DNA of 64,000 bases from an uncultured Spirochaetales bacterium (GTDB taxonomy: Bacteria; Spirochaetota; Spirochaetia; Sphaerochaetales; Sphaerochaetaceae): positions 291,161-355,160 of the forward strand of contig CASEAG010000028.1 in assembly GCA_949285785.1 (NCBI GenBank), given 5' to 3'. The notes below the pieces were generated by a model. The model did not search any database. It had not been told where the DNA came from and saw only the letters and a program-made list of their open reading frames with translations. How positions within the stretch are numbered: the stretch's first letter is position 1; every line of letters begins with the position of its first letter. Positions 27,362 through 48,315 of the stretch are shown here, piece after piece. The position numbers were made by a program, and so were the translations under genes.

Positions 27362-30043
27362 TCATTCATCGTACTCATCCGCACTCATCGTCTCCATGTA
27401 GAACTCAATATCTTCTGGGTCTGAAGTGTAGAAACAATCCCAATGGTTCTTTTCCACCTCAATTGCTTCCTCCCGAATCTCTGCATCATCACAGTTGAGA
27501 ATTGACCTTTCAATGTGCATTGCCCCATCGTTTGAGAATCTGATGTCGATGTCTTTGCCTCGTGCAAGTATCTTCTTGGCAATGCGTCGAGAGAATCCAA
27601 TCTCAACCAAACGAATCGTCTTTCCATCAGCTGTTCCATACTCGATGTACTTCGACCAATCATTCTGCAACAACTTGGTACTATCTTTCTTGAGAACTCT
27701 ATAACGGCGGGAGAAGATGCGGAAATAGTCGGCCAGTTCATGCAGCAGAACTTTGTCAATATCGCTCAGCACGCCATTCATGACCATGTTGCGTGCCATG
27801 GGGGTGCCATCATATATCTTAGCGTTCTGATATCCGAATATTTCCTTGTCTTTTCCTTCTTCATAGCGCTTGAGTTTGCTTGCGATCAGTTCTGGAACAG
27901 ATGTCCCATTTACCCACATGAACAGGAGGTAAGAATACCAGCGATGAGAGTTGCCTCTACCTAAAGTGGACTTGTTGTATACATCCCAATTGAAAATTAC
28001 CTTCAAATCCGACATAAACTCAGATACAGCTTCGTATGAATGTCCTTTCCTGCCGGGGCGCACCGGGTATGCACCACCATTCAGAATGTATTTGTCAAGC
28101 TTGGTTATCTGGTCATTGGAGATGTAGTACTCGTCATATGTAATCCCTTTGGGAAACCATCGCCTAATGCTATCTATCTGTCCCTCTGATGCATTCTCCT
28201 TTGCATTCATGACAATCGCCGAATCCTCATACCCAAGGGAAAGATCCCGTGTCAGCATGGTCGAATACATGCGTTCAAATCTGTGAGAAGCATCCCCATT
28301 GAGAAGTATGTCATTATTCGCAAGATCCTCGATGGTCTTCTTTATTCTTTTCACATTCTTCGGATGTTCTACGGAAAGGGTTTGTTCCGGAATCTTGCCC
28401 AAACAAAGTTTCTTGACATGATCGAGATCATTCTTATCTTCCTTGTCGCCGGTCCAGACGAAATATATGTTCCCTGACAGCTGGAATCTTATTCTTCCAG
28501 CCCTGCCAACAAGATTCTTAAATTCAATGGAAGACAGGTTGCTGTTTCCATTCTTGTGGCTGGTGATGAACAGGTTGTCACATGGAAAGTTCACTCCTTC
28601 AATGATTGTGCTCGTGCAGAAAATTGTATTGATTGAACCGTCTCGGAAAAGGCTCTCTATGATCTTTCTTACAGACGCAGGGAGTAATCCGATGTGGTAG
28701 GCTACACCTTTCTTGATTGTCTCAGCCAAGAAACAGTCCTTATGTACAAGTTCTACAATCTGGGAGGATGCCTGTTTAAGTTTCTCATATTGTTCCGAAG
28801 GCAAATCAGCAGTGTGCTTTTCTGCAAATTCAACAGCCCATCTCATGGCCTGCTCCGTCGATTTGCAATACACTATGTTCTTCTTGCCTCTTCCAAGATT
28901 CTCTATGACCGAAAGTGGCTTGTTCACACTCTTGAACTTGCCAAGCATGGAGAACTCTTTCTTCCGTCGATCCAATACATAGGCATGCTGATCTGCCAGA
29001 TCCATATAATAGAAGAAGTGGACAACCGGAGTATATTCGGAGGAAAGAGCAGTCTTGCTGTCATCACCACTGACAGTGAGGTGATCCCATGCGGATGTAG
29101 GAATCAATTGATTGAACACATCTGGATTCGGGATGTTGGGAGACGAGAATATAAGGTTGCAGCGTTTTTCCATGCGCATCACACGATCCACGATGCGGTA
29201 ATAAAGCAGACTGCGTTCTTTATCAGACGAGATGATCTGGGCTTCATCGATGAAGACATAATCGGGTCTTCGCACATCACCTTGCTCCATGAATGACAGG
29301 AATCGTTCTGGGGTCATCACGCATACGATGTTTGCTGCCACATTCTCCACTGGGCTGGACACAACACGATAGCCATGTCCACGAAGCAGATCTCCCAGCT
29401 TCTCAATCAGCTCAGATCGCACTTCGCTGACCAATGCCCTTGTCGGCAGGATGACGAAATAGTCACGGCACTTCCCATCTAAAATCTCCTTCCTGACGAA
29501 ATTGATAAACAGGAAGGTCTTCCCCAATGAGGTAGGCCCCGAAAAACTCAGAACGTCATTCGACAGGTTATCGAATATCAGCTTCTGGTCTGGGAAGAAA
29601 TACTGGTTCTCCTGTTCAGGAATTGCCAGATAATCCTTGTCCACCTGGATGGCCAATTCATCCCAAAATGACTTGAAACTGAATGTAGAATCAACAAGTT
29701 CTAGTCCGAGGAAGTTTGATGCAGAAGAAAGGACTCCGGCCAGAGTCTTTCTGATTTCTGGATTCCCGGGACTCAAGGCATCAATCATCACCATGATTTC
29801 CTGGGCAAGTTCCTTATAACTGTCCATATATCCGAAACAGGCAGTCTTGGCTAAGAGGTCGGCAAAAGACAAGAGGTCACCCAACTCTTTTTTCTCAAGT
29901 GGGGATTCGCTCATCAGGAATATCTTTCTGGAGTAAGCATTCAACAGCTTGGAATATAGGAAAGTAAGGTACTCATTGGACTCGATGTTCTTTGCAATAT
30001 ACTCGCGCAATGACATATCCGATTGGTTTCTCATGGCATTCAT
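27362..30043 (-). CDS. HamB-like Ski2-type helicase (Hachiman/AbpAB-type defence)
   Basis: 893 residues. Superfamily 2 helicase motifs: Ser-Gly-Pro-Thr-Ser-Leu-Gly-Lys-Thr (motif I, about residue 170), Leu-Pro-Thr-Arg-Ala-Leu (Ia), Asp-Glu-Ala-Gln (II), Phe-Ser-Ser-Pro-Asn (III) and Leu-Val-Gly-Arg-Ala-Gly-Arg (VI). The Ski2-like form and size match HamB/AbpB. The N-terminal 130 residues are helical and unassigned. The gene starts four bases inside the upstream HamA-like gene (overlap 30040-30043). G+C is clearly below that of its neighbours, which suggests transfer. In Hachiman the helicase senses DNA and frees the HamA effector; here that role is inferred. Confidence 0.75.
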   Translation of the reverse strand: MNAMRNQSDMSLREYIAKNIESNEYLTFLYSKLLNAYSRKIFLMSESPLEKKELGDLLSFADLLAKTACFGYMDSYKELAQEIMVMIDALSPGNPEIRKTLAGVLSSASNFLGLELVDSTFSFKSFWDELAIQVDKDYLAIPEQENQYFFPDQKLIFDNLSNDVLSFSGPTSLGKTFLFINFVRKEILDGKCRDYFVILPTRALVSEVRSELIEKLGDLLRGHGYRVVSSPVENVAANIVCVMTPERFLSFMEQGDVRRPDYVFIDEAQIISSDKERSLLYYRIVDRVMRMEKRCNLIFSSPNIPNPDVFNQLIPTSAWDHLTVSGDDSKTALSSEYTPVVHFFYYMDLADQHAYVLDRRKKEFSMLGKFKSVNKPLSVIENLGRGKKNIVYCKSTEQAMRWAVEFAEKHTADLPSEQYEKLKQASSQIVELVHKDCFLAETIKKGVAYHIGLLPASVRKIIESLFRDGSINTIFCTSTIIEGVNFPCDNLFITSHKNGNSNLSSIEFKNLVGRAGRIRFQLSGNIYFVWTGDKEDKNDLDHVKKLCLGKIPEQTLSVEHPKNVKRIKKTIEDLANNDILLNGDASHRFERMYSTMLTRDLSLGYEDSAIVMNAKENASEGQIDSIRRWFPKGITYDEYYISNDQITKLDKYILNGGAYPVRPGRKGHSYEAVSEFMSDLKVIFNWDVYNKSTLGRGNSHRWYSYLLFMWVNGTSVPELIASKLKRYEEGKDKEIFGYQNAKIYDGTPMARNMVMNGVLSDIDKVLLHELADYFRIFSRRYRVLKKDSTKLLQNDWSKYIEYGTADGKTIRLVEIGFSRRIAKKILARGKDIDIRFSNDGAMHIERSILNCDDAEIREEAIEVEKNHWDCFYTSDPEDIEFYMETMSADEYDE

Positions 30044-31494
30044 CCCAGCACCTCTTCTATCAATGAATCAAGATTGGATTCCAATTCGGTGAATGGAAGC
30101 AGATAGATGTAATAGCTGTAACCGAACATTCCCTCTTTAATGACAATCCGGCGAAAAGCTTCTTCCAGCTCGGCAATTCGTCTCTGCAAACGTAAGGACG
30201 CATACTGGTTGTACCCCCCACATTGAAGGATTGCCTCTCCATCTTTCATGTCTGCCTCATATCCTATGAACACTCCAAATGATCTGGATATCGATGATGC
30301 CTTCCCGACTTGTTGTTTCGGGATAATGAAATCTGCAATCATAGATGCCATATCATTGCTGAACAGCTTTGAAAGCAGTGCGGAATCAACATTTTTTGAA
30401 ATGGTCGGAAACTGATTCCTTATTGCAATCGAACAGTCAATGACCCTTTCCATCGCCTCTTGTGGACTCTCATCGGCAAAGGATAGGCCAAATACAAGTT
30501 GGGAGACATCGCCTTCATGTAGCAAATAGATTCCTCCGCAATCAGCACCCATGTCATCCGACGAATTGAGTTCAACATTCGTGAAGATCTTTGGTGCACA
30601 AAGGCCGCACTCCATGAAGGCATGAAGCAAGAATTCCACAACGACCTTTCTTCGTGTCGAAGAATCTGGATATTTGTTGCGAATGTGTTTCACCGCCTTA
30701 AGTGCAATAAGCTGTTTTCTCTCATCCGATTCTTCCATTTCAGATTTCTGACGACGACTGAGAGCAAATGATCCAACACTAATTTGGAAGAACTCTGTGA
30801 AGGCGTCATAATCAAATGACTCGCCAACGAGTGGAAGTGTAAAGATGTTCAGGCTTGAAGTCTTGTCCCCGACCTGAACATCAGCATGTCTCTGCAACTT
30901 GAAGATCTCATCAAACCTGTTCCGGTTCAAAGAGAATGGAATCGTGACAGGAAGTTTACCATCATCTATCAAATCGAAATAGTCTGGCGGAAAAGTATAA
31001 TCATTTATCCAATCGGGGTCTGTCTTTTTCTTCTTCTTATTCTTTGGATTGATTGCATTGGGAACAGTATCAAGAGAATGTTTTACAAGTGAAGCAAGAT
31101 AGTCAAAAAAGGGGAATCTCTCTCTTTCTCTTTTTATTGCTTCATATTTCTTGTTGATACACCCAAGTATCGTTTCAAGCCCAGCAGGATCTGAGCCTTG
31201 TAACACTTGTGCGGTTTTGCATACAAAGACATAGCGATTTGATGGAGTATATAAGTAGTCAAGTTCTTTCTCCAAATAGTTGGCATAGTCTTTTACTTCA
31301 GCTGAAATGATTTTATCTTTAAGATCTCTGGGAACTTCTCTGTTTCCTTGCTTAATTAAAGTAGGTATAGGGTCACCGGAAGACACTGCAGCATCGTCAT
31401 AACCCAGCAACCAGTGGTACAAGGTTGGCTGTTTGATTCTTCTACGTTTAGGAAGGATTAAAAGTAATTCAAAAATCTGTCCGAAACGATACAT
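30040..31494 (-). CDS. HamA-like DUF1837 protein of a Hachiman/AbpAB-type system
   Basis: 484 residues. The C-terminal half has the DUF1837 layout: a helix with Val-Val-Val-Glu-Phe-Leu-Leu, then Ala-Pro-Lys-Ile-Phe, then Gly-Ala-Asp-Cys-Gly-Gly-Ile. HamA nucleases next carry Gly-Glu-x-Lys; here the same spot reads Phe-Gly-Leu-Ser-Phe-Ala, so the Glu and Lys of the PD-(D/E)XK site seem lost. The N-terminal 240 residues are unassigned, and a run of Lys lies near residue 155. First gene of the two-gene operon, with promoter TTGATT-16-TATACT. The family call is by motif order, not by search. Confidence 0.62.
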   Translation of the reverse strand: MYRFGQIFELLLILPKRRRIKQPTLYHWLLGYDDAAVSSGDPIPTLIKQGNREVPRDLKDKIISAEVKDYANYLEKELDYLYTPSNRYVFVCKTAQVLQGSDPAGLETILGCINKKYEAIKRERERFPFFDYLASLVKHSLDTVPNAINPKNKKKKKTDPDWINDYTFPPDYFDLIDDGKLPVTIPFSLNRNRFDEIFKLQRHADVQVGDKTSSLNIFTLPLVGESFDYDAFTEFFQISVGSFALSRRQKSEMEESDERKQLIALKAVKHIRNKYPDSSTRRKVVVEFLLHAFMECGLCAPKIFTNVELNSSDDMGADCGGIYLLHEGDVSQLVFGLSFADESPQEAMERVIDCSIAIRNQFPTISKNVDSALLSKLFSNDMASMIADFIIPKQQVGKASSISRSFGVFIGYEADMKDGEAILQCGGYNQYASLRLQRRIAELEEAFRRIVIKEGMFGYSYYIYLLPFTELESNLDSLIEEVLG

Positions 31495-31842: not shown

Positions 31843-32322
31843 ATGCAGGAACGCATCAAATTCAGTTACACACTCGCATCGGGCCGGACTATCGTCCTTG
31901 AAGAAGGGCAGAACGGCATCACCAATGACCATATCGCAGCACTCATCGACCTCGACCGCATCGAGGCCAACGAGGCCAGACGCGATAGGGAGCATCGCAG
32001 CCAGCTAACCGAATTCGAGAAGAGTGCAATCCATGACGACGGCCGTATCCATACCGACCCAATCGAAAGGTTAGCCGATTATCGCTGGTCCCCTGAGAGA
32101 ATCATCTTCGCCGAGGAGAGCAAGGTCAGCCTGATGGATCAGGTTGAAGCCGTCCTTCCTAAACTCACAAAGGCACAAGCCGAACTCTTCAGACTCCTCC
32201 GACTTGGACTCACCGAGGGCCAGCTCGCCAAGACGCTTGGCATCAGTCGTGATGCCGTGAAGTCGAGGAAACGCTATCTCTTCGCCGCAATTCGCCGCCA
32301 GCTGGGAATCACTGTCGCTTGA
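31843..32322 (+). CDS. sigma-70 region 4-like phage regulator
   Basis: 159 residues. The last 60 residues form a helix-turn-helix of the sigma region 4 type: Leu-Thr-Lys-Ala-Gln-Ala-Glu-Leu-Phe-Arg, then Leu-Thr-Glu-Gly-Gln-Leu-Ala-Lys-Thr-Leu-Gly-Ile-Ser-Arg-Asp-Ala-Val. The N-terminal part (Leu-Glu-Glu-Gly-Gln-Asn-Gly-Ile-Thr) resembles small phage or transposon-borne sigma-like proteins. No SD is clear and the frame is open upstream without a start, so the true N-terminus may differ. It probably drives expression of the phage operons. Confidence 0.6.
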   Translation: MQERIKFSYTLASGRTIVLEEGQNGITNDHIAALIDLDRIEANEARRDREHRSQLTEFEKSAIHDDGRIHTDPIERLADYRWSPERIIFAEESKVSLMDQVEAVLPKLTKAQAELFRLLRLGLTEGQLAKTLGISRDAVKSRKRYLFAAIRRQLGITVA

Positions 32323-34804: not shown

Positions 34805-35941
34805 TCATTCTGGGACTTCTTCAAAAAAGATGTCCTTCCAAAACAAATAGGTCTTGTTGTTCGTACTGTAAAAGAATGCAAGTCCATAATGCCGACCTCC
34901 ATCCATGTCCACAACCTGGAGCACGTTGTCTGTGGCATATATTCCTGCAAACCGCCCCACAGGAAGCCCATCTATGTTCATCGAACCTGCAGCAAGACTT
35001 CCATCGACATATTGGAATTTGTTGCTTGTGAATACTTCAGGATCCTCTTGCCATACCGGCCCTTTCAGCCTATCAAGGGACAGAGCATCAAGACTTGCTG
35101 CTTCTGCATCATGCAACGTGTAGCGCAACATGTCGTTTTCACATAGGATTGCCCCGTCCCCAATTGCCTGTTCAATCGGCATCGCGAAGTGCATCACTGA
35201 CGGTATTCGGTCGGGACTGGAAAACAATATCGTGCTGTCATCGACTACATGATATGTACCCTTGCCGTAATGGTTGTCCTCAAGCCAGGTGACTGAGCCT
35301 TCGCCATCAAAGTAGTAGACGGCGTAGACAAGCCCCGTATTGTCACCTCGGCCAATCCAGAGGCCCTTCATCTCCGCTTCCAGTGAAGAGCCGTCAACAG
35401 GAACAATGTATGGATCCGGAACAACAAGAGATGGCGTGAAATCAAGCTCACTGTTATAGCCGTAATCGGTATCGTCATAGCAGAATTCGATGATGGCACC
35501 AGAAATCGTCTCTGTCTCCAATGTCTCGAAAATCACCTCGATGACCTGGGACTGTCCTGGCATCAGAGAGACCTGTGGCTGTGGTGAATGGATGCCACTC
35601 CACCATCTTGAAAAATATTTGTTGCCGTTTGCAAGCGTGATTGAGGGCATGCCAGTCAGCTTGTCCAGGTCAATCTGCATGTTGGCATTGTTCGTAATCG
35701 TCATGAAGACGATATAGAGGGTGTTGCCGTCTGCCGACTGCCACAGGGGTCCTTCGCTGTATTGTCGATATGAATCCAAGGAAACGGCATATTCATACTG
35801 GATGGAGAAAATCTCCTCCTTCTGAACAGGAAAATCAGGACTCGGGACATCTTGTCCGGGAAGATTGTCTGGTTGCTGGCAGGACAGCAACATCAGAAGA
35901 AGCATCGTTGCAATGAGCAGGGTCCTGACGTGTCTCAACAT
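34805..35941 (-). CDS. lipoprotein carried inside the prophage
   Basis: About 378 residues. The signal peptide ends Leu-Leu-Met-Leu-Leu-Ser-Cys-Gln, a clear lipobox, followed by a Pro-rich linker. The body is acidic and beta-rich with a repeated Gly-Leu-Trp-Ile-Gly-type segment; no family is recognised. It lies antisense between two early phage genes and has lower G+C than they do, so it looks like a moron expressed from the lysogen. ATG 35941 has GGGAGG before it; ATG 35971 is in frame. Confidence 0.72.
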   Translation of the reverse strand: MLRHVRTLLIATMLLLMLLSCQQPDNLPGQDVPSPDFPVQKEEIFSIQYEYAVSLDSYRQYSEGPLWQSADGNTLYIVFMTITNNANMQIDLDKLTGMPSITLANGNKYFSRWWSGIHSPQPQVSLMPGQSQVIEVIFETLETETISGAIIEFCYDDTDYGYNSELDFTPSLVVPDPYIVPVDGSSLEAEMKGLWIGRGDNTGLVYAVYYFDGEGSVTWLEDNHYGKGTYHVVDDSTILFSSPDRIPSVMHFAMPIEQAIGDGAILCENDMLRYTLHDAEAASLDALSLDRLKGPVWQEDPEVFTSNKFQYVDGSLAAGSMNIDGLPVGRFAGIYATDNVLQVVDMDGGRHYGLAFFYSTNNKTYLFWKDIFFEEVPE

Positions 35942-36049
35942 GTTGCCTCCCACTTGGAGACGATACTTCATAACCGAAATTGAATCCAGATTGTGATTGT
36001 CCCATTGCCAGAACCTACCTCAAATCTCCTTTCCAATAGGAGAACTTCT

Positions 36050-38430: not shown

Positions 38431-38904
38431 ATGGCAGAAGAAGCAAGAATCAGTGATTTCTCGATTTCCGGACTCCAGATGATGGAGAGCACGGACGGCT
38501 ACGCTATAAGATGCAGACTTCTTTACAAAGGCAAGAGTCTCGGAATGTTCTTCGACAAGGGAGACGGAAGCGAGTACTACTTCTATCCCGATAACGGTCA
38601 CAGTCAAGCCGAGGTCGAGGCGATGCTCACGGGAGAGGACTTCCCTCCAATCGACAACTTCCTTCCCGACCTGCCCCCACTCAGCTGGAACATCGGCATC
38701 CTCGTCGAGGAACTCATCAATCGAAAGGACCTCGATGACAGAATTGCCAAAGCGAAGAAGGAAGACAGGGATCTTGTCGTCATCGACGACGAGAAGGCCG
38801 GATACAGGTACTATGTGAAATTCCGCAGTTTCGCCCCCGATGAGGCCGTGGCCATGTACGTCAAGGCGAACTATGGCGACGGCGTGAAGTGGGTCAGATA
38901 TTAA
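38431..38904 (+). CDS. phage hypothetical protein
   Basis: 157 residues, acidic, no signal or membrane helix. It has a beta-rich N-terminal half (Tyr-Ala-Ile-Arg-Cys-Arg-Leu-Leu-Tyr) and a helical middle. Two surface segments, Ser-Glu-Tyr-Tyr-Phe-Tyr and Tyr-Arg-Tyr-Tyr-Val-Lys, are aromatic. No family is recognised. It is the last G+C-rich gene before the A+T-rich cassette. Confidence 0.55.
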   Translation: MAEEARISDFSISGLQMMESTDGYAIRCRLLYKGKSLGMFFDKGDGSEYYFYPDNGHSQAEVEAMLTGEDFPPIDNFLPDLPPLSWNIGILVEELINRKDLDDRIAKAKKEDRDLVVIDDEKAGYRYYVKFRSFAPDEAVAMYVKANYGDGVKWVRY

Positions 38905-38938: not shown

Positions 38939-38963
38939 CACACTAACTTTGGAGTCTATGATA

Positions 38964-40013
38964 ATGAACAAACTGACAGCCATTTCTCTTTTCACAGGTG
39001 CTGGAGGAATGGATATTGGCTTTGAAAAAGCTGGATTTGAAATACTTTGGGCGAACGAACTTGATGTCGATGCTTCTAAAACCTATACCCAGAACCATCC
39101 ATCAACCAAAACTGTTGTCGGCGATATAAACAATTGCATTCCAATGCTTTCAGAATACAGAGGAGCAGACATTGTCTTTGGAGGTCCTCCTTGCCAAGGT
39201 TTTTCGGTCGCTGGGAAAATGGATCCCAATGATGGCAGAAGCAAATTGATTTTCTCTTTTCTTAAAGCCGTGGAAATCGTCCAACCAAAGGTCTTTGTCA
39301 TGGAAAACGTGAAGGCGCTTGCTAAACTTGATAAGTGGGCAAATGTAAGAGCTGAATACTTTGACCAAGCCTCTAAGTTGGGGTATACATGCTATGCTTA
39401 TGTTCTAAATGCTACTGACTACGGTGTTCCTCAAAAAAGGGAGAGAGTTTTTTTTGTTGGAATAAAAGACGATCTCTTTTTTGGAGACCAAATCAGAGCA
39501 CTTATTGAAAAGCAAAAGTGCAATACGCCGACAATTAGGGAGTTGCTTACTCCACTTGGCAAGGCCGGTTCAAAAAACAACCCCAAAACATGCACAGCAA
39601 AGATTACATATGCAACAAACCCAGTAATGCGCCAGTCTCCATATGCTGGAATGATGTTTAATGGCATGGGTCGTCCAATAAATTTGGACAGTTTTGCTAA
39701 TACTTTACCAGCCTCAATGGGAGGGAATAAAACACCCATAATTGATGAAGATTATTTGTTTGATAACACCAAGAATAACTGGATTGAAGATTACCATAAT
39801 CAGCTGAAACATGGATATAAGCCTGAATTTGGAGAAGCACCCACTAGACTACGAAGACTAACAATAAAAGAAGCAGCTTTAATCCAAACCTTTCCTGAAG
39901 ACTACGTTTTCTGTGGTAAGAAATCAGCAATCTATAGACAAATTGGAAATGCAGTCCCATGCAAGCTTGCAGAAGTAGTTGCGAGAGCTGTTTATGAATA
40001 TCTCCACAAATAA
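38964..40013 (+). CDS. DNA (cytosine-5)-methyltransferase of an R-M-like cassette
   Basis: 349 residues. Motif I Leu-Phe-Thr-Gly-Ala-Gly-Gly-Met-Asp, motif IV Gly-Gly-Pro-Pro-Cys-Gln-Gly-Phe-Ser with the catalytic Cys, motif VI Glu-Asn-Val, motif VIII Gln-Lys-Arg-Glu-Arg and motif X Gln-Ile-Gly-Asn-Ala-Val-Pro are intact. Start is ATG 38964 or 38958. The gene has far lower G+C than the phage genes around it and its own promoter. It converges on a nuclease-like gene and a glycosylase, together forming a modification unit. Target sequence unknown. Confidence 0.92.
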   Translation: MNKLTAISLFTGAGGMDIGFEKAGFEILWANELDVDASKTYTQNHPSTKTVVGDINNCIPMLSEYRGADIVFGGPPCQGFSVAGKMDPNDGRSKLIFSFLKAVEIVQPKVFVMENVKALAKLDKWANVRAEYFDQASKLGYTCYAYVLNATDYGVPQKRERVFFVGIKDDLFFGDQIRALIEKQKCNTPTIRELLTPLGKAGSKNNPKTCTAKITYATNPVMRQSPYAGMMFNGMGRPINLDSFANTLPASMGGNKTPIIDEDYLFDNTKNNWIEDYHNQLKHGYKPEFGEAPTRLRRLTIKEAALIQTFPEDYVFCGKKSAIYRQIGNAVPCKLAEVVARAVYEYLHK

Positions 40014-40020
40014 ATGAGTC

Positions 40021-40040
40021 ATGCATCAGTTTAGATGCAT
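40021..40040. terminator. inverted repeat between convergent cassette genes
   Basis: ATGCATC (40021-40027) pairs with GATGCAT (40034-40040). It spans the end of the nuclease-like gene and lies seven bases after the methyltransferase stop, so it could stop both transcripts. Confidence 0.45.
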
Positions 40041-41129
40041 CCATAGCTTCTTCACTTTCTCCGATGTATTAATATCATTGACATAAGCATTCAGGAGAGA
40101 GTGAAATTTTTTTCTTGCTTCACCGTTTATTCTTTCTAGCATAAATCTCAACCATTCAAATATATTCCAAAAGATATACCTAACATCCTCACGATCATAA
40201 TAACCAAGGCTCAAAGAGGAATTTATTTTTTCCATTTCTCTTGGGCAATCTTCTGGTCTGCAAATAACAATTACCTCATGCACAGGTTCTCCAATTTCCG
40301 CATACGCGTGTAGGCATTTTAACGAATCATCTATTCGAGCTGAATCAAATGGTTTTACAGTAATTTCATATACTTTGTATATACTGCCATCTGATAACTC
40401 TTCATTTATATCACCGGGTTTTTTACTAGTCGTACTAGTTGTTGAAGCCCTATCATCACCAGTTACATTCACGTCGTCTTGAAGCGATTCATGAAAGGTC
40501 GACAATAAAAGAAAAGAAATCTTCTGTGGAGTATTTCCTCTATCAGGAGCTTCGACTATCAATCTTTTGCAGATGTCAAAGAGAATAGTGCTGGAAGCAG
40601 TAGGTTCGATCTCAATTTTCAGGTCCTCAACCATCTCGCTTTCGGAAATCAGATTTGCTAAAATCTTGGCGAGAACAATATCTACATTATCTCTATCAGC
40701 TTCAAGCCCTTCTACAATGTTTACTACAGCTTCACCTGATTCACGAGGCCTCTTATTTTCACTCCATGATCGGTCAATAGCCTTTATTGCTTTGCCGACA
40801 TTTAAGGGACCCGACTGCCTGTGTGGAATGTGTTTTTCTCTCAGAAACTTTTTTATTGGACCCTCAAATATTGCGCGAGGTTTACAGGCATATAAATCCT
40901 TTGAAGCTTCATAAGTAGGATCAAGTTTCATTGCAACACAAATTACAATCAGGATTTCTCTAAACCCCCAGGCCTCAAGTTTTTCTACTTTGTCATTTAT
41001 CACTTTGTTGAACAAATAAAAAATATCCGCATCAAATTCAGAATCCTTTAACACGACACCTGAAATTGCGTCATAATATGCCTGCTCTAAAATTTTAATT
41101 ATTAATGAATTCCTTTCTTCAACTTTCAT
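40026..41129 (-). CDS. candidate restriction endonuclease
   Basis: 367 residues, A+T-rich gene. The N-terminal 200 residues are helical. Near residue 240 there is Lys-Pro-Gly-Asp-Ile, then 14 residues on Glu-Ile-Thr-Val-Lys-Pro-Phe, an order like a PD-(D/E)XK nuclease core, followed by Val-Ile-Val-Ile-Cys-Arg. Its place beside a C5 methyltransferase supports a type II restriction enzyme, but no family is recognised. Translation is coupled to the upstream glycosylase by a four-base overlap. Confidence 0.5.
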   Translation of the reverse strand: MKVEERNSLIIKILEQAYYDAISGVVLKDSEFDADIFYLFNKVINDKVEKLEAWGFREILIVICVAMKLDPTYEASKDLYACKPRAIFEGPIKKFLREKHIPHRQSGPLNVGKAIKAIDRSWSENKRPRESGEAVVNIVEGLEADRDNVDIVLAKILANLISESEMVEDLKIEIEPTASSTILFDICKRLIVEAPDRGNTPQKISFLLLSTFHESLQDDVNVTGDDRASTTSTTSKKPGDINEELSDGSIYKVYEITVKPFDSARIDDSLKCLHAYAEIGEPVHEVIVICRPEDCPREMEKINSSLSLGYYDREDVRYIFWNIFEWLRFMLERINGEARKKFHSLLNAYVNDINTSEKVKKLWMHLN

Positions 41130-41803
41130 AATAAACCCTCCTTTTTAGTTATTCCGTTGTCCAATGCACGATATAAAAATCGGGATGCGATTGAACAATA
41201 TGGGTTCCAACTTTCCGTATTCTTTTTTATAGATTTTTGTGACACATCTTGGGTTGAATAAGCCCATTTATAAGCAGCACAAAAAGCACCGTCTTCAAAA
41301 GGTAAGACATTTTTACGGTCTAGAACAAAAATCAAATACATTTTTGCAGTCCAAGGTCCTATTCCTTTTATCCTTGTTAGGCTTTGAATAATATCGGAGT
41401 CATTTTTTTCTTCTAACGCGGAGAAATCAAGCTCCCCAGAAACAACTGCTTGAGTAAGATTTCTGATATAACTTACCTTGGCATTTGAAATGCCTGTGTT
41501 CCGTATTTGGTCATTAGTCAAATTATTGATAGTCTTTACTGTGATTTGACCGTTACATAGCTCGACTAATCGATTTGTTATGATGTCTCCTGCCTTATTT
41601 GAAAGCATTTGAGCAATAATATTCGCCACAAGAAAGCTATATGAATCATCATAAGGTCTATATTCTATTGGACCGACCAGGTTGATCACTCTGGCAATCG
41701 TAGAATCATTTTTTATTAAATGCTTTACTGCTTCGCTTTCAGAATTTAATAAAACTTCATCATGCATTTCATTGGACCTGTTGCCCAGTCTACTTGAAGA
41801 CAC
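41126..41803 (-). CDS. HhH-GPD (AlkA-like) DNA glycosylase of the cassette
   Basis: 225 residues or 213 if ATG 41767 is used. The helix-hairpin-helix reads Ile-Lys-Gly-Ile-Gly-Pro-Trp-Thr-Ala-Lys-Met, and the catalytic Asp is in Leu-Pro-Phe-Glu-Asp-Gly, as in AlkA. It should cut N-glycosidic bonds of damaged or mismatched bases. Beside a C5 methyltransferase it may repair T:G mismatches from 5-methylcytosine deamination, like Vsr or thermophilic Mig enzymes, or act as part of the restriction step. It is first in the two-gene minus-strand operon. Confidence 0.72.
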   Translation of the reverse strand: MSSSRLGNRSNEMHDEVLLNSESEAVKHLIKNDSTIARVINLVGPIEYRPYDDSYSFLVANIIAQMLSNKAGDIITNRLVELCNGQITVKTINNLTNDQIRNTGISNAKVSYIRNLTQAVVSGELDFSALEEKNDSDIIQSLTRIKGIGPWTAKMYLIFVLDRKNVLPFEDGAFCAAYKWAYSTQDVSQKSIKKNTESWNPYCSIASRFLYRALDNGITKKEGLL

Positions 41804-41902: not shown

Positions 41903-44392
41903 ATGTCGTCCATATCGGAGGACCGTCTTCCAAGGAAGTTCGGCATAGCAATCGGCGACAGGGTCGACGCACGACGCTGGCGCAACACCGAGATGACATT
42001 CGAGGAGCTTGCATCGAAGCTCGAGACCCCTGTCAGGACGGGCGAGTCCTCCATGGAGTACGCCTCGATGAAGGGCCGGGAGAGGCTCACAACCAAGGAC
42101 CACGGAGGCTTCGTCGGAGGCAGACTCAGGGGGAACGTCAGGGACGCCGCCCATGTCGAGTGCAGATCGTTGCTGACCCTCGACGCCGACAACGCCGAGG
42201 CAAGCCTCATGACGAGGATAATAGCCGAGGCGGAATGCGACCTGGTCATCTACACGACGCATGGCCACACTCCACAGAAGCCGAGGTTCAGGGTCATCGT
42301 CCCCCTGGCAGAGGATGTAGGCCCCGACGCATACAACGCCGTCGCGCGCATCTGGACATCGCACTGGGGAATCGACAACTTCGACCCAGTGTCATTCCGG
42401 CCGGCGCAGCTCATGTTCTGGCCGAGCGCACCATCGGACGGCGAGTACATCTGCACACGCTCCTCCTCAAGGGCGCTTCTGGATCCGGACAGGGTCCTTG
42501 CCTCGGTGCCGGACTGGAGGGATGTGGCGAACCTCCCGAAGACAAAGGGAGAGGACAGCACCGCTGCGCATGGCAAAGTTGCGGAGGACCCGCTTGGGAA
42601 GCAGGGGCTTGTAGGAGCCTTCTGCCGCACCTACTCCATGACGGAGGCGATCGGGACATTCCTTTCCGACATCTACGAGCCGACCGACTGGGAGGAGCGC
42701 TGGAGCTACATCCCGGCGGACTCCAGGGGCGGACTCCTCGTATACGACGACAGGTGGGCCTACTCCCACCATGCAAGCGACCCGGCATACGGACGACTCT
42801 GGAACGCATACGACCTCGTGCGCATCCACAGGTTCGACAACCTCGACGGGAACGTGAAGTCCAGCACGGAGATGGCCCGAAGACCTTCTGTCAGGGCGAT
42901 GAACGATCTCGTCTCCAAGGACTCTAGGGTCAAAAAGACCATAGTCGACGAGCGCATCAGAGATTTAAAATCGGACTTTCATTCCGAAACAGGTACTGAA
43001 TTATGTAATGAGGAATGGAAGGAAAGACTTGATGTCGACGGCAAGGGACGGATCCGGGAAACCGTGGAGAACATCCGCCTGATCCTCGCCAACGACCCCG
43101 CCCTCAAGGCAATCGCCTATGACGAGCTTGCCTGCCTCGTCTCAGTGCGTGGAGAACTCCCATGGAGCACATGCGGCAGGGGCTGGACGGAGATGGACTT
43201 CTCATGCCTCCTCGTCTACCTCAGCGCACGCTACGGCATCTACTCGACGCAGAAGACGAGGGACGCATTCAACGACGTCATCCTGACACGCAGGTTCCAC
43301 CCCATCAGGGAATACCTGGACGGATTGCCGCCATGGGACGGGACACCGAGGCTCGACACCCTGCTCGTCGACGCGCTTGGAGCCGAGGACACGGAGTATG
43401 TCAGGGCGGTGACAAGGAAGACTCTTGTCGCTGCGGTCGCCAGGGCGATGCATCCCGGCATCAAGTTCGACCATGTCCTCATCCTCTCCGGACCACAGGG
43501 CATAGGCAAGTCCGGGCTCTTCGCCAGGCTTGGAGGCAGGTGGTTCTCGGACTCCCTCACCCTCACGGACATGAAGGACAAGTCCGGCAGCGAGAAGCTC
43601 CAGGGCTGGTGGATCATGGAGCTTGGAGAGCTTGCGGGGATGCGCAAGGCGGACATCGAGTGCGTCAAGGGATTCATCACCTGCACGGACGACCGCTACA
43701 GGCCGGCATATGGCCGACAGGTCGAGACGCACCCGCGCACCTCGATAATAGTCGGCACGACCAACAGCGAGAGCGGGTTCCTGCGCGACGTGACCGGAAA
43801 CAGGAGATTCTGGCCGGTGGCCGTCAATGGCAGGGCCGACGGAAGGACGCCATGGGACATGGAGCAGTTCGAGATCGACCAGATCTGGGCCGAGGCCAAG
43901 GTGCGCCATGCGGAAGACGAGACGCTCTACCTCGATCCCGCAGTCTCAGTCGAAGCCGAGAGGATGCAGACGGACGCCATGGAGCACGACGAGCGCCGTG
44001 GCCTCGTGGAGGCGTACCTCGAGACACGCCTGCCACCGGAATGGGAGGCCATGGAGCTCGGGCAAAGGCGCTCGTATCTTGCCATGCACGACCCCGCCAA
44101 TCCTCCCGTCGCAAGCGTCAGGAGGGAGCACGTGTGCAACATGGAGATATGGGCCGAGTGCTTCGGCAGGGAACCCTCCTCCATGACGCGCAAGGACAGC
44201 TACGACATCTCGGCGATCATGGCATCCCTCGACGGATGGCACCAGCAGTCAGGCCCGGGCGAGCATGGAAGGCGCCGATTTCCCATCTACGGACGACAGA
44301 GGAGCTACGAGCGCACCACGGGACAGGCACCGACCGACGGAGGTCTCGTCCCGTTCACGCACTGGGCCGACGGCCTGCTGGAGAAGAGGTGA
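41903..44392 (+). CDS. VirE-family phage primase-helicase
   Basis: 829 residues. The N-terminal part (to about 200) resembles a primase-polymerase-like domain with Leu-Thr-Leu-Asp-Ala-Asp. The C-terminal half is a VirE/D5-type ATPase: Walker A Gly-Pro-Gln-Gly-Ile-Gly-Lys-Ser, Trp-Trp-Ile-Met-Glu-Leu-Gly-Glu-Leu as Walker B, and Gly-Thr-Thr-Asn-Ser-Glu as sensor. It unwinds and primes the phage origin. The gene lies under RNA leader copy 2. A patch at about 42958-43035 is A+T-rich and may mark an old joint between the two halves. Confidence 0.88.
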   Translation: MSSISEDRLPRKFGIAIGDRVDARRWRNTEMTFEELASKLETPVRTGESSMEYASMKGRERLTTKDHGGFVGGRLRGNVRDAAHVECRSLLTLDADNAEASLMTRIIAEAECDLVIYTTHGHTPQKPRFRVIVPLAEDVGPDAYNAVARIWTSHWGIDNFDPVSFRPAQLMFWPSAPSDGEYICTRSSSRALLDPDRVLASVPDWRDVANLPKTKGEDSTAAHGKVAEDPLGKQGLVGAFCRTYSMTEAIGTFLSDIYEPTDWEERWSYIPADSRGGLLVYDDRWAYSHHASDPAYGRLWNAYDLVRIHRFDNLDGNVKSSTEMARRPSVRAMNDLVSKDSRVKKTIVDERIRDLKSDFHSETGTELCNEEWKERLDVDGKGRIRETVENIRLILANDPALKAIAYDELACLVSVRGELPWSTCGRGWTEMDFSCLLVYLSARYGIYSTQKTRDAFNDVILTRRFHPIREYLDGLPPWDGTPRLDTLLVDALGAEDTEYVRAVTRKTLVAAVARAMHPGIKFDHVLILSGPQGIGKSGLFARLGGRWFSDSLTLTDMKDKSGSEKLQGWWIMELGELAGMRKADIECVKGFITCTDDRYRPAYGRQVETHPRTSIIVGTTNSESGFLRDVTGNRRFWPVAVNGRADGRTPWDMEQFEIDQIWAEAKVRHAEDETLYLDPAVSVEAERMQTDAMEHDERRGLVEAYLETRLPPEWEAMELGQRRSYLAMHDPANPPVASVRREHVCNMEIWAECFGREPSSMTRKDSYDISAIMASLDGWHQQSGPGEHGRRRFPIYGRQRSYERTTGQAPTDGGLVPFTHWADGLLEKR

Positions 44393-46992: not shown

Positions 46993-47016
46993 ACCTTGTT
47001 AGAAGGAGTAGTTCTC

Positions 47017-48315
47017 ATGGGGTTGAGATGCCACAGGTCTATTCGGATATGCAAGGGTTTGAGACTCAACATCTCGGGGTCTGGCATAGGCTTATCCGTA
47101 GGTGTCCGTGGAGCATCTGTCAGCTTCGGCCCCAGAGGAACATATGTCAATGTGGGAATTCCGGGGACAGGCATTTCCTACAGAGAGAAGATTGGTGACT
47201 CCTCAAGGAAAACGTCTGGAGCATCACAGGCTGTGCCAAGTAGACCTGTCGATATCGAGTTAATTGTGAAATACATACTCGATGATGATGGGAAGGAGCG
47301 TATCGAGTTCTATCGTGATGGTACCCTTGTGACCGATGAGAGCCTTATCCGTCGCGTCAAACGAACCGATCAATACAAGGAGTGGCTACAGGAATCCAGG
47401 AAGAAGGTGGTAGACAAGGTCGAAAACGACACAGAGGCTCTTCTCACCCTGACAAGGCACTGCATCCCGAGAACCGATTGGGATATGGTTCGGACAAGGT
47501 TTGAATCAATGAAGCCAGAACGCTATATCCGTAGGGTCTATGGTGTGCGTAAGCCAGATGCTGCCGATGCCGAACGAGTCGTCGCTGCGAGGGCCCAGAA
47601 GGTCACCGAGAACAAGTTCATACTCTTCAGGAATAAGGCAAGAATAGACTATATCAACAACAATCGCTCTGCGGTGATGGAGGAAATTCTTGCTGACTGG
47701 CAAAAGGAAAAAGACCGTTTCGAAGAAAACGAGAATCGCCTCGAGAAGATAGAGAACGACAAGTTTAACAGTCGCTTCTCAGAGCAGAAGGAATACATCG
47801 CCCATATGCTATCCCCCAACAAAGGCTTCCTTGAGTGCAGAATGGATGACTTGCTTTCCGAAATCAGATTACCTGTCGAGTTCAATGTCGATTATGAAAT
47901 AGCGGATGACCTCAAATCGATGAAGATGGACATTGAACTCCCCGGAATGGACTGCATTGCAGAGAGGACTGCTCGTATCCTTGCCTCAGGAAAGGCCTCA
48001 AGCAGAAAAAAGCCACAGAAGACCATCAAAATGGAATATACCAAGGTAGTGTTCGGTCTGGCCTTTTATTTCGCTTCCGTCGCATTCTCGCTAGCCCCGA
48101 CCATCTCGGAAGTCGATGTGGCAGGCCATGCAAGAACTATCGACGGAAGCACGGGACACGAGGTAGATGCATATCTGTATCATGTCGTATACGCGATTGA
48201 CGACTTCTTCGAACTCGATTTTGCCAACATCGACCCGTTGCTGGCCATAAGACGATTCAATCCTGAGATGGACATCGATGCAGGCTACGAAATGAAGGCA
48301 ATCGAATTATCATGA
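47017..48315 (+). CDS. DUF4236-domain protein, cargo gene
   Basis: 432 residues. The first 60 match DUF4236 (Arg-Leu-Asn-Ile-Ser-Gly-Ser-Gly-Ile-Gly-Leu-Ser-Val-Gly, then Val-Asn-Val-Gly-Ile-Pro-Gly-Thr-Gly). A long charged coiled region follows (about 220-290) and one hydrophobic helix (about 345-365). The role of DUF4236 is unknown. The gene has lower G+C than the phage genes, its own promoter and terminator, so it is an insert between the early and packaging modules. Confidence 0.75.
   Translation: MGLRCHRSIRICKGLRLNISGSGIGLSVGVRGASVSFGPRGTYVNVGIPGTGISYREKIGDSSRKTSGASQAVPSRPVDIELIVKYILDDDGKERIEFYRDGTLVTDESLIRRVKRTDQYKEWLQESRKKVVDKVENDTEALLTLTRHCIPRTDWDMVRTRFESMKPERYIRRVYGVRKPDAADAERVVAARAQKVTENKFILFRNKARIDYINNNRSAVMEEILADWQKEKDRFEENENRLEKIENDKFNSRFSEQKEYIAHMLSPNKGFLECRMDDLLSEIRLPVEFNVDYEIADDLKSMKMDIELPGMDCIAERTARILASGKASSRKKPQKTIKMEYTKVVFGLAFYFASVAFSLAPTISEVDVAGHARTIDGSTGHEVDAYLYHVVYAIDDFFELDFANIDPLLAIRRFNPEMDIDAGYEMKAIELS

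What the first reader, a model, noticed from the sequence alone, without database searches (positions are those of the whole stretch)
38964..41803. C5 methyltransferase, nuclease-like protein and AlkA-type glycosylase as one mobile unit inside a phage
Three A+T-rich genes, with their own promoter and a shared end hairpin, split the G+C-rich early operon. A C5 methyltransferase faces a coupled pair: an HhH-GPD glycosylase with catalytic Asp and a protein with a Pro-Gly-Asp...Glu-x-Thr-Val-Lys core. The glycosylase may mend deaminated 5-methylcytosine, or cut bases as a restriction step. R-M units with an AlkA-type partner instead of Vsr are not commonly described.
Basis: partly seen in the sequence, partly recalled or inferred. 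Interest (0 to 1): 0.65.

Follow-up and report, generated by a model that had tools for sequence, protein, structure and literature searches.

The report
Prophage restriction unit with DNA glycosylase
A bacterial virus sleeping in its host's genome carries a DNA-cutting defence system with an added base-removing enzyme, and close relatives of that enzyme sit beside many unrelated DNA-cutting enzymes, so it looks like a little-noticed recurring accessory of such defences.

Summary
The three genes are real and form a complete Type II restriction-modification (R-M) unit carried as prophage cargo: a C5 methyltransferase (38964-40013) facing a coupled glycosylase (41126-41803) and endonuclease (40026-41129). 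The 367-residue protein has no family hit, but its predicted structure matches EcoT38I endonuclease over 322 residues (Z 22.4; next other enzyme 8.4). The methyltransferase resembles those paired with SacI-type enzymes, so GAGCTC/GRGCYC is the predicted site. The trio recurs in the same order in gut Clostridia. The wider finding: close relatives of the glycosylase lie within 5 kb of a DNA methyltransferase in 12 of 13 viral contigs (the 13th is cut off), beside SacI, Eco47II, HincII and other endonucleases, normally next to the endonuclease on its strand. Several of these systems methylate adenine, so repair of deaminated 5-methylcytosine cannot be the general role. Against: relatives in host chromosomes are mostly not R-M-linked. 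No own promoter, strong terminator or flanking repeats were found. The glycosylase's substrate is unknown; a restriction-side role is favoured weakly over clearing methylation damage. Verdict: new variant of a known kind.

The parts
38964..40013 (+). C5-cytosine DNA methyltransferase (349 aa; an upstream TTG start at 38949 is possible)
   Evidence: Pfam DNA_methylase E 2.6e-73, NCBIfam dcm 1.9e-63; 62-66% identical to methyltransferases of related units
40026..41129 (-). Type II restriction endonuclease of EcoT38I-like fold (367 aa), PD-(D/E)XK-like core
   Evidence: AlphaFold2 model pLDDT 84.3 matches EcoT38I 7edb: Foldseek E 1.7e-8, prob 1.00, Z 22.4 over 322 residues; beside a C5 methyltransferase in 14 of 17 loci that carry it
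40353..40412 (-). catalytic core of the endonuclease, codons of D240 to K259 (D240, E255, T257, K259)
   Evidence: invariant in 9 of 9 and 11 of 11 aligned sequences; residue numbering checked
41126..41803 (-). AlkA2-like HhH-GPD DNA glycosylase (225 aa from GTG; likely 213 aa from ATG at 41767)
   Evidence: Pfam HhH-GPD 8.6e-10; phmmer to 2h56 E 5.1e-31 and DrAlkA2 2yg8 E 4e-24; model pLDDT 91.1, Z 24.5 to 2h56
41126..41129 (-). ATGA overlap: glycosylase stop and endonuclease start (translational coupling)
   Evidence: sequence
41291..41293 (-). codon of catalytic Asp171 of the glycosylase
   Evidence: invariant in 14 of 14 aligned R-M-linked sequences; aligns with Asp of 2h56 and 2yg8
40021..40040 (.). 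weak 7-bp hairpin at the meeting point of the convergent genes
   Evidence: -8.4 kcal/mol, z -0.47
38431..38904 (+). left flanking phage gene (157 aa, unknown)
41903..44392 (+). right flanking phage primase-helicase
   Evidence: phrog_256 DNA helicase E 3.7e-282

Best explanation
A complete Type II R-M system is inserted as cargo in the replication region of a prophage. The C5 methyltransferase marks host and prophage DNA at a GAGCTC/GRGCYC-like site; the EcoT38I-like endonuclease cuts unmarked incoming DNA and, as a side effect, helps keep the prophage. The third gene, an AlkA2-like glycosylase translated together with the endonuclease, belongs to a distinct glycosylase clade that is shared as an accessory by many unrelated R-M systems. 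My favoured reading is that it works on the restriction side: it removes bases in incoming DNA that block or escape the endonuclease, leaving abasic sites. Shown: gene identities, folds, coupling, recurrence, association. Inferred: recognition site, that the genes are active, and the glycosylase's substrate and role (restriction-side role about 0.4 likely; R-M identity of the unit about 0.9).
For: R-M identity; C5 methyltransferase with the endonuclease in 14 of 17 loci (of the other three, L011 and L187 end before it and L016 lacks it); distant plasmid relatives have methyltransferase - HTH regulator - endonuclease head to head. Site: methyltransferases paired with SacI endonucleases (RE_SacI E 3.7e-115; 1.9e-56) are 63-66% (L204: 56%) identical to this one, and the former keep the target-recognition stretch; a separate line, the EcoT38I fold match, points to GRGCYC (site recalled). 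Accessory: 12 of 13 viral loci found by the glycosylase itself have a DNA methyltransferase within 5 kb against 2 of 9 viral loci with other AlkA-like genes (Fisher p 0.0015). Coupling: in 18 of 22 R-M-linked loci the glycosylase is on the endonuclease's strand within 165 nt of the endonuclease or partner gene (15 with a recognised endonuclease, 3 with an unrecognised partner); in 0 of 22 does it directly abut a methyltransferase on one strand. Distinct pocket: M66 in 28 of 28 clade members against Q in 62 of 62 others, Y211 in 27 of 28 against W in 62 of 62. Precedent for glycosylases in anti-phage defence: Brig1 and Brig3 (PMC11078745 abstract and passages; PMC13160076 passages).
Against: No activity, methylation or substrate was measured. 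No sequence-level match links the 367-residue family to EcoT38I, and PADLOC's endonuclease hit is weak (E 0.033; 4 of 9 members, best 0.0011). The same glycosylase clade, with the same pocket residues, occurs without R-M genes in chromosomes: 7 of 28 clade rows are orphans, and of 40 chromosomal loci in the window's own class only 1 had a methylase hit, weak and 4.3 kb off. The glycosylase is dispensable: only 6 of 17 loci with this endonuclease have it (L010 is cut off on that side) and one keeps a 30-residue remnant (L006). Several linked loci are close kin, so counts are not independent.
Confidence: 0.45

Rival explanations
1. Vsr/Mig-like repair: the glycosylase removes T from T:G pairs left when the unit's own 5-methylcytosine deaminates.
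For: This unit methylates C5; of 18 R-M-linked loci found through the glycosylase, 13 have a C5 and 5 an amino methyltransferase (labels, counted). HhH T:G glycosylases beside a C5 methyltransferase have a precedent (Mig.MthI, recalled; not found in my library searches).
Against: Same clade sits in adenine systems (HincII with N6 methylase, type-I-like N6 methylase). Two C5 units carry Vsr as well (L026, L158). The gene abuts the endonuclease, not the methyltransferase; where an OGG-type glycosylase is present it is that one that follows the methyltransferase.
Confidence: 0.2
2. Clearing of methylase by-products: the AlkA2-like enzyme removes alkyl lesions such as 3-methylcytosine, 1- or 3-methyladenine that DNA methyltransferases or their cofactor leave in DNA.
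For: Would apply to C5 and adenine systems alike. The second-best solved relative by sequence, DrAlkA2 (E 4e-24), excises 3meA, 7meG, 1meA and 3meC (PMC5128194, passage). That DNA methyltransferases make 3-methylcytosine is recalled, not found in a call.
Against: Two positions differ from all 62 ordinary relatives, which suggests another substrate. Coupling is to the endonuclease. The one paper search on this (10 of 15 listed) showed no bacterial R-M case.
Confidence: 0.2
3. Hitchhiking: the glycosylase is a general repair gene caught in defence islands and has no functional tie to the R-M genes, or it is a non-catalytic lesion binder.
For: Orphan clade members in chromosomes. The host genome has no other match to this profile (1 match in G000), so the prophage copy could serve ordinary repair. 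S. pombe Mag2, titled a glycosylase homolog that sculpts DNA at abasic sites, is among the closest folds (Z 22.6).
Against: Tight coupling to at least six endonuclease types (EcoT38I-like, SacI, Eco47II, HincII, PDLC03402, SacI-family on plasmids) and label clustering on the tree (7 changes against 20 shuffled, 0 of 500 as low). Catalytic Asp kept in 14 of 14.
Confidence: 0.13

Closest known systems
EcoT38I R-M system (E. coli P2 prophage)
   Same: Endonuclease fold over nearly the whole chain (Z 22.4); C5 methyltransferase partner (recalled); prophage cargo (title of Kita et al. 2003 seen in the reference list of PMC4176335; text not held). GRGCYC and a C regulator are recalled.
   Different: No detectable sequence identity by search; genes convergent rather than head to head; no C regulator gene seen in the window; extra glycosylase.
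SacI-type R-M systems
   Same: Methyltransferase 63-66% identical including target-recognition stretch; in Clostridia-type viral contigs they carry the same glycosylase in the same place (L020-L023).
   Different: Endonucleases not detectably related (hhalign probability 2.4%).
AlkA2-type 3-methyladenine DNA glycosylases (2h56, DrAlkA2 2yg8)
   Same: Fold (Z 24.5 and 22.4), catalytic Asp, HhH-GPD domain.
   Different: Clade-specific M66, Y211, E170, K154, R208 in place of residues fixed or different in ordinary members; R-M context.
Vsr and Mig-type mismatch repair accessories of C5 systems
   Same: Repair-type enzyme carried in an R-M unit (recalled).
   Different: Different fold from Vsr; found in adenine systems too; tied to the endonuclease gene.
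Brig1/Brig3 anti-phage glycosylases
   Same: Base excision by a glycosylase near restriction genes (PMC11078745, PMC13160076, passages).
   Different: Brig3 is placed in the uracil-DNA glycosylase superfamily and neither paper mentions HhH or AlkA in its text (0 occurrences).
PabI-type restriction glycosylases
   Same: Glycosylase in restriction (titles seen in the reference list of PMC12707154).
   Different: There the glycosylase is itself the sequence-specific restriction enzyme; here a separate endonuclease is present. Fold differs (recalled).

Membership tests
Type II R-M system | DNA methyltransferase with conserved C5 motifs | tested here: met
   Pfam 2.6e-73; GGPPCQ and other conserved blocks in alignment
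Type II R-M system | restriction endonuclease with nuclease fold and active-site residues | tested here: met
   D240, E255, K259 invariant
Type II R-M system | both enzymes act on the same site | not testable with these tools
   needs methylome and digestion
EcoT38I/BanII-like endonucleases | same overall fold | tested here: met
   Z 22.4, rmsd 4.9, 322 residues; Foldseek TM 0.60/0.62
EcoT38I/BanII-like endonucleases | detectable sequence relationship | tested here: not met
   no EcoT38I hit by phmmer or profile search of PDB sequences up to E 10; I therefore say 'EcoT38I-like fold', not member
EcoT38I/BanII-like endonucleases | recognition of GRGCYC | not testable with these tools
   prediction only; site counts in the window are uninformative: GRGCYC 29 seen, 38.5 expected in 26800-64000; 21 seen, 24.7 expected in 1-26700
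AlkA2-type HhH-GPD glycosylases | HhH-GPD fold and catalytic Asp | tested here: met
AlkA2-type HhH-GPD glycosylases | ordinary residues at two conserved positions (Q at 66, W at 211) | tested here: not met
   M66 and Y211; 62 of 62 ordinary rows have Q and W
AlkA2-type HhH-GPD glycosylases | excision of 3-methyladenine | not testable with these tools
   needs assay
Vsr-type mismatch accessories | Vsr nuclease fold | tested here: not met
   protein is HhH-GPD
Vsr-type mismatch accessories | restricted to C5 systems | tested here: not met
   adenine systems L024, L029 and, for a more distant AlkA-like gene, L103
Brig-type defence glycosylases | uracil-DNA glycosylase superfamily | tested here: not met
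   HhH-GPD instead (for Brig3)

The most novel reading that the evidence does not exclude
There is a class of Type II R-M systems with a third, endonuclease-coupled arm: an HhH glycosylase of a dedicated clade that excises modified or masked bases which would protect incoming phage DNA, so that cutting and base excision act together. The clade moves between unrelated endonucleases (EcoT38I-like, SacI, Eco47II, HincII and others) and between cytosine- and adenine-methylating systems, while a second, OGG-type glycosylase serves the methyltransferase side in some units.
Probability: 0.33. Interest if true: 0.8.

Novelty: new variant of a known kind. Interest (0 to 1): 0.58.

Why it matters
R-M systems are usually described as two enzymes, with Vsr as the classic add-on for cytosine systems. 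A glycosylase clade that abuts endonuclease genes of several unrelated types, in adenine as well as cytosine systems, says that base excision is a regular partner of restriction. It gives a clear test: either restriction enzymes are backed up by base removal against modified phage DNA, or methylation causes base damage broad enough that mobile R-M units carry their own repair. It also assigns an unannotated 367-residue family to a restriction endonuclease fold and predicts its site.

Tried and rejected
Family searches for the 367-residue protein gave nothing useful (Pfam only VPR/VPX E 0.11; NCBIfam none; PDB sequences no relevant hit). A relationship between it and SacI endonuclease was tested and not seen. 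Site avoidance of GAGCTC/GRGCYC in the window was tested and is uninformative. A strictly mobile unit was looked for by flanking repeats; none bracket the trio. Own promoter and terminator: no excess over shuffles for promoters, hairpin ordinary.

The idea that this glycosylase group is exclusive to R-M units was tested and rejected: chromosomal orphans L062 and L064-L069 fall in the clade. For those controls I read the best 40 places after the window's own (101 of 394 genomes had a match) and 18 of the 37 other matching genomes (I left out G686 and G682, a contig-edge and an interrupted gene, and the weaker rows). Methyltransferases were detected with a C5 profile and a few adenine-methylase seeds, so adenine methylases in controls could be missed; a loose motif check raised the counts to 4 of 40 in the own class and 4 of 9 in other viral loci. 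Two of those four viral loci proved to have real amino methylases (L154 N6_N4, L157 D12); I count L154 as R-M-linked in the rival section and L157 as undecided. The first Fisher value printed used a control count of 1 of 58; the detection counts in the same call give 2 of 58, so I do not use that value. The tree used 74 of 90 rows; 16 low-scoring chromosomal rows were dropped, and duplicate contigs, L031, L063, L162 and L163 were left out before that.

Paper searches listed no paper on an AlkA-type glycosylase in R-M units; the open-licence library lacks most subscription papers, so this is weak evidence of absence. REBASE was not available.
Full report
WHAT IS THERE. The window holds a prophage (terminase, DNA polymerase A, DUF2800, single-strand annealing protein, primase-helicase). 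Between a 157-residue gene (38431-38904) and the primase-helicase (41903-44392) lie three A+T-rich genes: a C5 methyltransferase on the + strand and, converging on it, a glycosylase-endonuclease pair on the - strand whose stop and start codons overlap as ATGA. G+C is 0.36-0.40 inside against 0.58-0.62 outside.

INSERTION. Relatives of the phage replication genes were found in a genome of the window's own family (three places, L200-L202) and in one viral contig (L194). None of the four stretches has a match to any of the three genes, and L200 and L201 keep the order DUF2800, annealing protein, polA, 37977-gene, primase with about 0.8 kb before the primase. The trio is therefore cargo in a variable slot. 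No flanking repeats were found and there is no evidence of its own mobility.

THE 367-RESIDUE PROTEIN HAS A RESTRICTION ENDONUCLEASE FOLD. Family libraries are blank apart from a weak PADLOC Type II endonuclease hit (E 0.033; 4 of 9 aligned members, best 0.0011). Relatives at 36-51% identity were found in Clostridia and viral contigs, and at 27-29% on Psychrobacter and Acinetobacter plasmids. In 17 loci with this protein, 14 have a C5 methyltransferase beside it; in two the sequence ends first and L016 lacks it. On the plasmids a small HTH protein precedes it, as C regulators do. D240, E255, T257 and K259 are invariant. The AlphaFold2 model (pLDDT 84.3) matches EcoT38I endonuclease with Foldseek E 1.7e-8 and probability 1.00, and Z 22.4 over 322 residues, the next entry other than EcoT38I at 8.4. 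No sequence match to EcoT38I was found, so I call it EcoT38I-like in fold.

PREDICTED SITE. The methyltransferase is 62-65% identical to those paired with this endonuclease in Clostridia and equally (63-66%) to those paired with SacI-family endonucleases, and the stretch that usually holds the target-recognition domain is conserved across both sets and largely in the Psychrobacter one. An Evtepia phage pairs a 56% identical methyltransferase with a SacI-family endonuclease and has no glycosylase match. SacI (GAGCTC) and EcoT38I (GRGCYC) sites are recalled; both lines point to the same site family. The two endonuclease families are not detectably related.

THE GLYCOSYLASE. It is HhH-GPD (E 8.6e-10), closest in sequence and fold to B. 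halodurans 2h56 (phmmer E 5.1e-31; Z 24.5); D. radiodurans AlkA2 is second by sequence. DrAlkA2 excises 3meA, 7meG, 1meA and 3meC (PMC5128194, passage). A 74-row tree puts the window gene in a clade of 28 with full support (100/100): 20 R-M-linked, 7 orphan, 1 undetermined. The clade has Met at position 66 (28 of 28; Gln in 62 of 62 others) and Tyr at 211 (27 of 28; Trp in 62 of 62), plus mostly E170, K154 and R208. In the alignments these two positions face a Gln and a Trp of 2h56; from recall they correspond to the wedge and a base-stacking residue in AlkA. Altered specificity is an inference.

IT IS A RECURRENT R-M ACCESSORY. A scan of viral contigs with the glycosylase alignment gave 13 loci. 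Twelve have a DNA methyltransferase within 5 kb; the thirteenth, L031, is cut inside the gene. Partners: EcoT38I-like endonuclease (L019, the same contig as L002), SacI (L020-L023), Eco47II (L027), a PADLOC Type II endonuclease (L028), HincII with an N6 methylase (L029), a type-I-like N6 methylase (L024), a two-domain N6/N4 methylase (L025), two C5 methylases with Vsr (L026), and a C5 methylase (L030). A Terrisporobacter phage has it with a split Type II endonuclease and two methylases. Plasmids of Aeromonas caviae and Comamonas carry a more distant AlkA-like gene after a Dam-type methylase and an annotated SacI-family endonuclease; viral L155 has C5 methylase, Eco47II-like endonuclease and glycosylase, and L158 C5 methylase, Vsr and glycosylase.

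CONTROLS. Nine other viral loci with AlkA-like genes: 2 of 9 by the same test (Fisher p 0.0015 against 12 of 13; 4 of 9 with a loose motif). Chromosomal loci of the window's own class: 1 of 40, a weak hit 4.3 kb away (4 of 40 with the motif). Clostridia: 1 of 18, L169, itself a clade member with a C5 methylase 13-14 nt away on the other strand. Clade members L062 and L064-L069 of the own class are orphans. So the link is strong on mobile elements and absent in those chromosomes.

GEOMETRY. Of 22 R-M-linked loci, 18 have the glycosylase on the endonuclease's strand and within 165 nt of it (15 with a recognised endonuclease; L024, L025 and L030 have an unrecognised partner gene); L028 has it on the other strand; L026, L158 and L169 have no recognised endonuclease. 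In none does it directly abut a methyltransferase on one strand. Four of the 22 (L002, L003, L005, L007) were first fetched through the endonuclease, so they are not independent evidence of association. By contrast an OGG_N-type glycosylase (E 5.8e-16) directly follows the methyltransferase in L002, L005, L006 and L022, is broken in L021 and cut off in L011.

HOW IT PROBABLY WORKS. Methylation and cutting follow from family knowledge. For the glycosylase three readings remain. Repair of deaminated 5-methylcytosine fits this unit but not the adenine systems, nor the units that also have Vsr. Clearing of alkyl by-products fits both chemistries and the substrates of DrAlkA2. A restriction-side role fits the tie to the endonuclease, the altered pocket and the wide sharing among defence units. 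I lean to the last at about 0.4; it is an inference.

NOVELTY. Ten paper searches listed no report of it. A 2025 R-M review (PMC12707154, passages only) mentions glycosylases three times, in one sentence on base excision and in two reference entries, and never Vsr. R-M systems in prophages are known but rare (PMC4176335, abstract and passages). I rate this a new variant of a known kind.

Noticed in passing
27362-31494 (-): A Hachiman defence system (HamB 27362-30043, PADLOC E 4.7e-229; HamA 30040-31494, Pfam E 1.2e-15) lies in the A+T-rich left part of the prophage.
   Followed up: partly
34805-35971 (-): A 388-residue gene without any Pfam, NCBIfam or PADLOC hit sits on the minus strand between the annealing protein and polA; the related stretches L194 and L200-L202 gave no match to it, so it is probably another cargo gene.
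   Followed up: partly
46996-48315 (+): DUF4236 domain followed by a stretch weakly like a type IV methyl-directed restriction enzyme (PADLOC E 7.7e-6), at lower G+C.
   Followed up: no
31843-32322 (+): A 159-residue frame with a weak CARF-like match (PADLOC E 5e-5).
   Followed up: no
L005:7821-8648 (and L002, L006, L022): An OGG_N 8-oxoguanine-type glycosylase gene directly downstream of the C5 methyltransferase, a second base-excision accessory in the same units.
   Followed up: partly
L006:5239-5328: A 30-residue remnant of the glycosylase upstream of an intact endonuclease, so the accessory can be lost.
   Followed up: no
L103 and L189: Mobilizable plasmids of Aeromonas caviae and Comamonas carry a Dam-type methylase, SacI-family endonuclease and AlkA-like glycosylase in a row; on the Aeromonas plasmid carbapenemase and aminoglycoside resistance genes are nearby.
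   Followed up: no
L002:2737-5007, L003:2862-4703, L015:4086-5750, L024:3975-5777, L031:3015-4823: SMC/Rad50-like ATPase genes recur just upstream of these units, perhaps a neighbouring defence system (function guessed from the start of the sequence).
   Followed up: no
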